A DNA stretch of 64,000 nucleotides, taken from contig NZ_LT608326.1 in assembly GCF_900095705.1 (NCBI RefSeq), forward strand, positions 310,001 through 374,000, written 5' to 3'. The position numbers and the translations under genes were made by a program. The notes beneath the pieces are model-generated. The model was not told the origin of the DNA. It saw only the letters and a list, made by a program, of their open reading frames with translations, and did not search any database. The stretch is from Fusobacterium massiliense (GTDB lineage: Bacteria > Fusobacteriota > Fusobacteriia > Fusobacteriales > Fusobacteriaceae). Of this stretch, positions 7,605-40,941 are shown one piece after another; the stretch's first letter is position 1; every line of letters starts with the position of its first letter.

Positions 7605-7616
7605 TATATAAATAAA

Positions 7617-7690
7617 GTCTCTTGACAGCCGTATGAGTTCTACGAGCTCAATAAACACAGGCTCTTCGAACTAATACGGACGTCAGAGAC
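7617..7690 (-). repeat. dispersed palindromic repeat, copy 5
   Basis: A full-length copy in reverse orientation, with AAATAAAGTCTC on the left and the reverse of the conserved flank (TAATTTTATACTTTTCTTATA) on the right. It begins 13 bases after the glycosylase stop. Confidence 0.9.
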
Positions 7691-7715
7691 TAATTTTATA
7701 CTTTTCTTATAAATT

Positions 7716-10614: not shown

Positions 10615-10659
10615 TAAAATCTAAATGAAGGAAAGTACAAGTTTAAATAATAAAAATTA

Positions 10660-10733
10660 GTTTCTTATATCCGTATTAGCTCGAAGAACTTGTTCTCATT
10701 GAGTTTGTAGAACTTATACGGCTGTCAAGAAAC
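10660..10733 (+). repeat. dispersed palindromic repeat, copy 8
   Basis: A diverged copy whose outer stem is GTTTCT/AGAAAC, a compensated change from GTCTCT/AGAGAC. The inner AGCTC/GAACT stem has one mismatch. Left flank GGAAAGTACAAGTTTAAATA is kept. It follows the AEC carrier stop by 45 bases and ends in TTTTTTTATTTT, so it could serve as that gene's terminator. Confidence 0.85.
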
Positions 10734-10813
10734 TTTTTTTATTTTATGAGAGCCTTCTTTTTTGCAGCATAAAATTATTTGCATAATTATTATGAAAAAG
10801 TGGAGGTAAGAAT

Positions 10814-11317: not shown

Positions 11318-11503
11318 TATTTTGGCAAGTTTAAATATAAATGATGTAAATAAAGTGAGTAGTGAAAAAGAAGGTTTTATTTTAAAGAGAATTAAAAAAG
11401 TAAAGTATATAAATTTTATATGATTACTTATAGTTTTTTTTAAAATATTAATTTTTGATTAAAAATTAAGAAAAAAATAAAAAAATAGCACTGGCTAAAA
11501 AAC

Positions 11504-11525
11504 GAACATTTTTTTATTTTTGTTC
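11504..11525. promoter_or_regulatory. inverted repeat in the adhesin upstream region
   Basis: GAACA (11504-11508) and TGTTC (11521-11525) flank a 12-base A/T core. This is operator-like spacing. It lies 187 bases after the helix-turn-helix gene and 70 bases before the G-run. Confidence 0.35.
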
Positions 11526-11594
11526 ATTTTAAAAACAAAAATAAAGAATATCAGTTAAAAAAACAACACAAAGAAATATTTTTTTAAAAAATTA

Positions 11595-11606
11595 GGGGGG
11601 GGGGGG
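11595..11606. repeat. poly-G tract of 12 bases
   Basis: Twelve consecutive G in DNA that is otherwise overwhelmingly A/T. It lies 105 bases upstream of the adhesin promoter -35 and 260 bases upstream of the adhesin ATG, outside any gene. Runs of this length are prone to slipped-strand length change. Confidence 0.95.
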
Positions 11607-11676
11607 TTAAAATATAGAAAAAAAGGGAGTTCAGAACAAAAAATAAATAGAAAAGAATATATATCAGATATATTAT

Positions 11677-11700
11677 AGTCTTGAAATTAAAGACTTTTTT
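11677..11700 (+). terminator. small terminator-like hairpin between the G-run and the adhesin promoter
   Basis: AGTCTT (11677-11682) pairs with AAGACT (11690-11695) around a seven-base loop and is followed by T residues. It would insulate the adhesin promoter from upstream transcription. A 6-bp stem is weak. Confidence 0.45.
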
Positions 11701-11711
11701 GATAAAAAACC

Positions 11712-11740
11712 TTTACAAATTATACATGGTATGGTATACT
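11712..11740 (+). promoter_or_regulatory. predicted sigma-70 promoter for the adhesin gene
   Basis: TTTACA at 11712-11717 and TATACT at 11735-11740 with exactly 17 bases between. It leaves an untranslated leader of about 120 bases before the adhesin ATG. Confidence 0.65.
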
Positions 11741-11866
11741 AAATTATCATAAAATAAAAAATTCTTAATTAAATTTTAAATCAAACAAACTCAATTAAGA
11801 GCTGATAAATTAAGTTAAAAAAAGTAATTAGATGCTCTTGGTTGAAAGATTAAAAAAGGAGAGAAA

Positions 11867-21344: not shown

Positions 21345-21391
21345 AAAGATATTTTAGTATCATAGGAAAGTATAAAATTAAATGTTTATTA

Positions 21392-21465
21392 GTCACTGAC
21401 GTCCGTATTAGTTCGAAGAACCTTTGTTCATTGAGCTCGTAGAACTCATACGGCTGTCAAGAGAC
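21392..21465 (+). repeat. dispersed palindromic repeat, copy 11
   Basis: Full-length, with the outer stem carrying an uncompensated change (GTCACT/AGAGAC). Flanks ATAGGAAAGTATAAA and GAGACTTTATTTATT are present. It lies between two convergent genes and is the only hairpin there, so it may terminate both. Confidence 0.88.
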
Positions 21466-21478
21466 TTTATTTATTTTG

Positions 21479-40830: not shown

Positions 40831-40854
40831 TATAAGGATAAATAACAAAAATTA

Positions 40855-40928
40855 GTTCCTGATGTCCGTATTAGTTCGAAGAGCCTGTGTTCATTGAGCT
40901 CGTAGAACTCATACGGCTGTCAAGAGAT
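40855..40928 (+). repeat. dispersed palindromic repeat, copy 14
   Basis: A complete core with intact CCGTAT and AGTTC stems but a partly mismatched outer stem (GTTCCT/AGAGAT). The left flank is shortened. It lies just beyond the ilvC stop, between two convergent operons. Confidence 0.85.
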
Positions 40929-40941
40929 TTTGTTTCAATTG

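What the first reader, a model, noticed from the sequence alone, without database searches (positions are those of the whole stretch)
11318..11866. Twelve-G run upstream of the trimeric autotransporter: candidate phase-variation switch
Twelve consecutive G residues lie in very AT-rich DNA, 105 bases upstream of a clear TTTACA-17-TATACT promoter. Surface adhesins in Neisseria and Helicobacter are commonly varied by runs like this. In Neisseria nadA, a repeat tract upstream of the promoter changes expression by altering the spacing of regulator sites. An inverted repeat (GAACA...TGTTC, 11504-11525), a terminator-like hairpin (11677-11700) and a helix-turn-helix gene just upstream make a regulatory arrangement plausible.
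Basis: partly seen in the sequence, partly recalled or inferred. Interest (0 to 1): 0.8.

Follow-up and report, generated by a model that had tools for sequence, protein, structure and literature searches.

The report
Poly-G tract upstream of adhesin promoter
A run of twelve Gs before a surface-adhesin gene in a Fusobacterium-type bacterium is almost certainly not chance: the genome has only four such runs, two of them before its two trimeric adhesins, and relatives show the same pattern with differing lengths, so it is probably a slipping on/off or dimmer switch, although switching itself could not be observed here.

Summary
In detail: G12 at 11595-11606, 105 nt upstream of TTTACA-17-TATACT (extended -10), ahead of a YadA-type trimeric autotransporter (TAA, 684 aa). 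The whole 1.81-Mb genome contains only four G/C runs of 7 or more. They are 11, 11, 12 and 14 long, with nothing in between. Two lie upstream of the two TAAs found, one lies exactly between a perfect TTGACA and TATAAT, and one lies in a small ORF. In three well-assembled Fusobacteriaceae genomes, 8 of 11 runs of 9 or more lie within 300 nt upstream of a Pfam-confirmed TAA, G on the coding strand. In one relative, TAA paralogues with near-identical leaders carry G7, G9, G10 and G12 at the same place. Other family tracts sit in TonB receptors and a DNA methylase, apparently switching frame. The helix-turn-helix gene is TAA-linked across the genus. This strongly supports a slippage-type contingency locus. 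The molecular effect is less certain: distal spacing (nadA-like) is favoured over a second promoter with the tract as spacer. The GAACA/TGTTC repeat is not distinguishable from chance. No strain or read data were available, so length variation at this locus and any expression effect remain untested. New member of a known kind.

The parts
11595..11606 (+). G12 homopolymer, putative slippage tract, 260 nt before the TAA start codon, G on the coding strand
11712..11740 (+). Putative TAA promoter TTTACA-17-TATACT with extended -10 (TG)
   Evidence: same style as TTGACA-17-TATACT upstream of a TAA in L120
11867..13921 (+). Trimeric autotransporter adhesin, 684 aa; YadA head repeats, stalk, membrane anchor; weak match to the fusobacterial autotransporter N-terminal domain NF033175
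10814..11317 (+). HTH protein, 167 aa, probably two tandem winged-helix (HTH_17/Xis/MerR-like) domains; TAA-linked across the genus; candidate regulator
11584..11613 (+). Weak promoter-like TTAAAA-18-TAAAAT spanning the tract (alternative: the tract as spacer of a second promoter)
   Evidence: 1.7% of random insertions reach 9/12; p 0.06
11677..11700 (+). Weak terminator-like hairpin AGTCTT/AAGACT plus T-run between tract and promoter
11504..11525 (.). Inverted repeat GAACA-12-TGTTC; present but not above chance

Best explanation
The G12 tract is a slippage-prone contingency element of the adhesin promoter. Replication slippage adds or removes single Gs, and each change shifts and rotates the AT-rich upstream DNA, with whatever binds there (RNA polymerase alpha-subunit, a bending protein, possibly the neighbouring tandem winged-helix protein), relative to the core promoter at 11712-11740. 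Adhesin transcription therefore takes graded high/low levels among sister cells. Shown here: the tract, its improbability, its association with TAA genes in this genome and relatives, unequal lengths in paralogous copies, the TAA linkage of the HTH gene, and the absence of a reading frame joining the tract to the adhesin. Inferred: that this tract slips, that length alters transcription, and that the effect acts by distal spacing rather than within a promoter.
For: Only four G/C runs of 7 or more in the genome, all 11-14, where about 14 of 7 or more and 0.02 of 11 or more are expected. Two of the four are upstream of the two TAAs found (chance about 2e-7). In G000, G001 and G036, 8 of 11 runs lie within 300 nt upstream of a TAA start (chance below 1e-22). 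G036 TAA paralogues have G7/G9/G10/G12 in otherwise near-identical leaders. Tracts 38 and 42 nt upstream of TTGACA promoters occur before the other TAA of this genome and a TAA of G001, giving the same distal arrangement. The TAA frame opens only 7 codons above its start (open frame 691 versus 684 aa) and no ORF of 20 aa or more crosses the tract, so a translational frameshift switch is excluded. HTH orthologues adjoin TAAs in G000, G001 and G002.
Against: No second isolate or reads, so slippage at this locus is unseen and the assembled length of 12 may itself be imprecise. The HTH-TAA pair of G001 has no tract, so the tract is not a fixed part of the module. Distances from tract to start vary among TAAs (21, 122, 127, 198, 260 nt), so no single mechanism is implied. 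No operator pair flanking the tract was found.
Confidence: 0.6

Rival explanations
1. The tract is the spacer of its own upstream promoter (TTAAAA-18-TAAAAT); slippage retunes the -35/-10 distance (G11 would give 17), as in porA/opc/fetA, and the resulting transcript either reads into the adhesin or ends at the hairpin at 11677-11700.
For: A 9/12 spanning promoter is present; only 1.7% of random insertions in the same region reach this (6% with a looser null). The same genome has a G11 exactly between a perfect TTGACA and TATAAT (L027), and G035 has G10 likewise (L138). Across 23 upstream or noncoding tracts examined, spanning promoters exceed chance (P 0.0006).
Against: Both hexamers are weak here; a better promoter lies 105 nt downstream; the hairpin would tend to stop the upstream transcript; the other TAA tracts of this genus have no strong spanning promoter.
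Confidence: 0.2
2. The tract is real and mutable, but silent at this site: variation does not change adhesin expression.
For: The tract is 105 nt upstream of the better promoter; an orthologous HTH-TAA pair lacks it.
Against: The genome otherwise contains no G/C runs of 7-10 at all, so long runs appear to be kept only at particular sites, and those sites favour surface-protein promoters.
Confidence: 0.12
3. Assembly or sequencing artefact, or chance homopolymer.
For: Some G-runs in other draft genomes sit at contig ends (for example G031:C23, G050:C99).
Against: This one is internal to a 421-kb contig; chance expectation is about 0.003; the TAA association repeats in independently assembled genomes.
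Confidence: 0.03
4. The tract acts as a DNA structure element (for example a G-quadruplex or stiff poly-G segment) that blocks or insulates transcription from upstream, with length tuning the effect.
For: G on the coding strand at the TAA tracts; variable distance to the promoter would be tolerated.
Against: No direct evidence; not tested here.
Confidence: 0.05

Closest known systems
Moraxella catarrhalis uspA1 poly-G tract
   Same: G homopolymer upstream of a trimeric autotransporter adhesin gene, similar lengths (6-12 G), level-type transcriptional control (PMC7302503)
   Different: The uspA1 tract is about 29 bp before the start codon; here it is 260 bp before it and 105 bp before the putative -35. 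Length variation and expression change are demonstrated there, not here
Neisseria meningitidis nadA TAAA tract (NadR/IHF)
   Same: Repeat tract distal to the promoter of a trimeric autotransporter, AT-rich flanks, a regulator implicated (PMC2791445)
   Different: Tetranucleotide rather than G; NadR operators flanking the tract are demonstrated there, none is detectable here; the HTH protein here is Xis/MerR-like and is encoded next to the adhesin
porA/opc/fetA promoter-spacer homopolymers of Neisseria
   Same: Homopolymer that can retune a promoter; L027 in the same genome has this exact architecture
   Different: At the window locus the spanning promoter is weak and a better one lies downstream

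Membership tests
SSR contingency locus (phase variation by slipped-strand mispairing) | Homopolymer or short tandem repeat far longer than chance, near a surface-structure gene | tested here: met
SSR contingency locus (phase variation by slipped-strand mispairing) | Tract length differs between isolates or cells at the same locus | not testable with these tools
   No second strain or reads; only indirect support from G036 paralogues with G7/G9/G10/G12
SSR contingency locus (phase variation by slipped-strand mispairing) | Length changes expression | not testable with these tools
   needs colonies and transcripts
nadA-like distal-spacing switch | Tract lies upstream of the core promoter | tested here: met
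   105 nt upstream of the -35; the promoter itself is a prediction
nadA-like distal-spacing switch | Regulator operators on both sides of the tract | tested here: inconclusive
   No repeated motif above chance, but the binding motif of the HTH protein is unknown
porA/opc-like spacer switch | Tract between good -35 and -10 hexamers | tested here: inconclusive
   Weak 9/12 spanning pair at the window tract (p 0.02-0.06); met perfectly at L027 in the same genome
Translational (frame) phase variation | Tract inside, or in frame with, the coding sequence | tested here: not met
   TAA frame opens only 7 codons upstream of its start; no ORF across the tract
Trimeric autotransporter adhesin | YadA-type head, stalk and C-terminal membrane anchor | tested here: met
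   the stalk match is just below the curated cut-off, head and anchor above

The most novel reading that the evidence does not exclude
Fusobacteriaceae use poly-G tracts as a repeatedly acquired switch kit for trimeric autotransporters (upstream, promoter, leader and 5'-coding positions), and in this genus the tract works together with a TAA-linked tandem winged-helix regulator that reads tract length through DNA phasing, a dedicated adhesin-regulator module not described in the literature searched here.
Probability: 0.2. Interest if true: 0.75.

Novelty: new member of a known kind. Interest (0 to 1): 0.55.

Why it matters
Fusobacterial adhesins matter in oral biofilm and disease, and the CbpF paper states that no study has demonstrated phase variation in F. 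nucleatum TAAs (PMC6346709). This locus and its relatives give concrete tracts to genotype. If real, strain-to-strain absence of adhesin binding could reflect switching rather than gene loss, and single-genome surveys of adhesin content would misjudge expression.

Tried and rejected
The 42-nt match of the hairpin region to nine genome sites lies, where read, in the 5' part of a repeated transposase gene and is probably an AT-rich chance match. Rfam: no match. Operator search across the tract: nothing above chance. A frameshift switch for this gene: excluded. PDB fold search with the HTH model: no match below E 0.001; short Xis/BldC/Par-type DNA-binding domains are the most sensible partial matches.

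Full report
Observation. The adhesin (684 aa) carries YadA head repeats and a membrane anchor above Pfam cut-offs and a YadA stalk match slightly below, and weakly matches NCBI's fusobacterial autotransporter N-terminal domain.

Is the run more than chance? In the window, G runs go from at most 5 straight to 12. From dinucleotide content one expects about 0.003 runs of at least G12 in a 1.81-Mb genome. The whole genome was then scanned: only four G/C runs of 7 or more exist, of 11, 11, 12 and 14 Gs, although about 14 of at least 7 would be expected. That bimodal distribution is what maintained mutable tracts look like, not a tail of random runs.

Where the four runs sit. (a) The window tract. 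(b) G11 upstream of a 3294-aa second TAA (Trp-ring, stalk and anchor domains), 38 nt before TTGACA-17-TAAAAT. (c) G11 exactly between TTGACA and TATAAT (spacer 19) upstream of a small lipoprotein-like gene followed by MORN_2-repeat genes. (d) G14 inside a 126-aa ORF between large-exoprotein-like fragments. A TAA search of the genome found only the two TAAs; both have a tract. The genome also has a 2502-aa autotransporter-type gene at C6:18255 without one.

Relatives. A scan of 61 Fusobacteriaceae genomes for runs of 9 or more, followed by reading most of the loci, showed: both runs of G001 (same genus) are just upstream of TAAs; four of five runs of G036 are upstream of TAAs and the fifth is in the 5' coding part of a TonB-dependent receptor. 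Over these three genomes 8 of 11 runs are within 300 nt upstream of a TAA start, chance below 1e-22 (the three genomes were chosen because they have TAAs and few contigs, so the figure is descriptive). In G036, four TAA paralogues with near-identical 5' leaders have G7, G9, G10 and G12 at the same point. This is the closest available stand-in for strain variation. Elsewhere in the family, tracts lie near the 5' end of TonB receptors (one paralogue's signal peptide in frame, L128; one apparently out of frame, L130) and at a frame break just before a DNA methylase (L131 G12, L145 G9), the usual layout of frame-switch loci. Runs in more distant genera are often inside housekeeping genes or at contig ends and were not counted as support.

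The HTH gene. Its full-length orthologues (45-49% identity) were found only in this genus: one in G001 directly upstream of a TAA, and five full-length plus two truncated in G002, most directly downstream of TAA or autotransporter genes where the contig reaches far enough (one, L222, could not be decided). The model (mean pLDDT 61; first domain 74-92 by block) suggests two tandem winged-helix domains; partial fold matches include phage Xis, BldC and pSK1 Par DNA-binding domains, none with a significant E-value. A DNA-binding role is likely; regulation of the adhesin is inferred from linkage.

Mechanism. The adhesin frame opens only seven codons above its start and no ORF crosses the tract, so frame switching is excluded. 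That leaves transcription. The better promoter is the TTTACA/TATACT pair (10/12 with extended -10; 1.3% of shuffles), which puts the tract in a distal upstream position as in nadA (PMC2791445); the second TAA of this genome and one TAA of G001 have tracts 38 and 42 nt above their -35. The alternative is that the tract is the spacer of TTAAAA-18-TAAAAT (9/12; p 0.02-0.06). Two other family tracts lie in perfect 12/12 promoters, so spacer switching probably exists in the family. I favour distal spacing but not strongly. The GAACA/TGTTC repeat is within chance (31% of shuffles) and the hairpin at 11677-11695 is modest; no motif repeated across the tract was found.

Comparison with the known. The closest precedent by gene type and repeat is uspA1 of Moraxella catarrhalis, a trimeric autotransporter tuned by an upstream G tract (PMC7302503); by position it is nadA. 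In fusobacteria, possible phase variation of other autotransporters has been suggested, but the CbpF paper says none had been demonstrated for F. nucleatum TAAs (PMC6346709); my searches found no later demonstration, with the caveat that most subscription papers are not held. The finding is therefore a new member of a known kind, in a group where the question is open.

Limits. No second isolate of this species and no reads were available; the tract length is as assembled; expression is untested. Species identity is unresolved beyond Fusobacteriaceae.

Noticed in passing
window 10657-10738, also about 2573-2661, 7608-7695, 21388-21477, 40850-40935: A dispersed ~90-bp hairpin-forming intergenic repeat (fold z -3.95 for the 10655-10750 copy), at least 42 places in the genome (only 40 of 253 first-look candidates scored), most 82-88% alike; in the window the copies lie at or next to gene ends, so perhaps a REP-like element or terminator family; no Rfam match for the copy at 10657.
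   Followed up: partly
L027:4054-4084 (G000:C5:402067-402077): G11 exactly between TTGACA and TATAAT (spacer 19) upstream of a small lipoprotein-like gene and MORN_2-repeat genes: a textbook porA/opc-type arrangement in the same genome.
   Followed up: partly
L025:5171-5551 (G000:C4:151184-151197): G14 inside a 126-aa ORF without Pfam match, in a region of large-exoprotein-like fragments; possible frame-switched small gene.
   Followed up: no
L131 (G021), L145 (G017): Poly-G (G12, G9) at a frame break between a ~157-aa upstream ORF and a DNA methylase ORF (PF01555 in L131): candidate phase-variable methyltransferases in Fusobacteriaceae.
   Followed up: partly
L126, L128, L129, L130 (G036, G037): TonB-dependent-receptor-like genes with poly-G near the 5' coding end, lengths 10-12, one copy (L130) apparently out of frame with its signal peptide.
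   Followed up: partly
L220, L221, L223, L224, L226 (G002): TAA followed directly by a tandem winged-helix HTH gene, repeated several times in one genome: an uncharacterised adhesin-HTH gene pair.
   Followed up: partly
L026:5167-6453, L027:1355-2641: A transposase-like 428-aa gene, identical in these two copies and with the same end sequence at other places in the genome; the L026 copy ends about 37 bp before the G11 tract of the giant TAA.
   Followed up: partly
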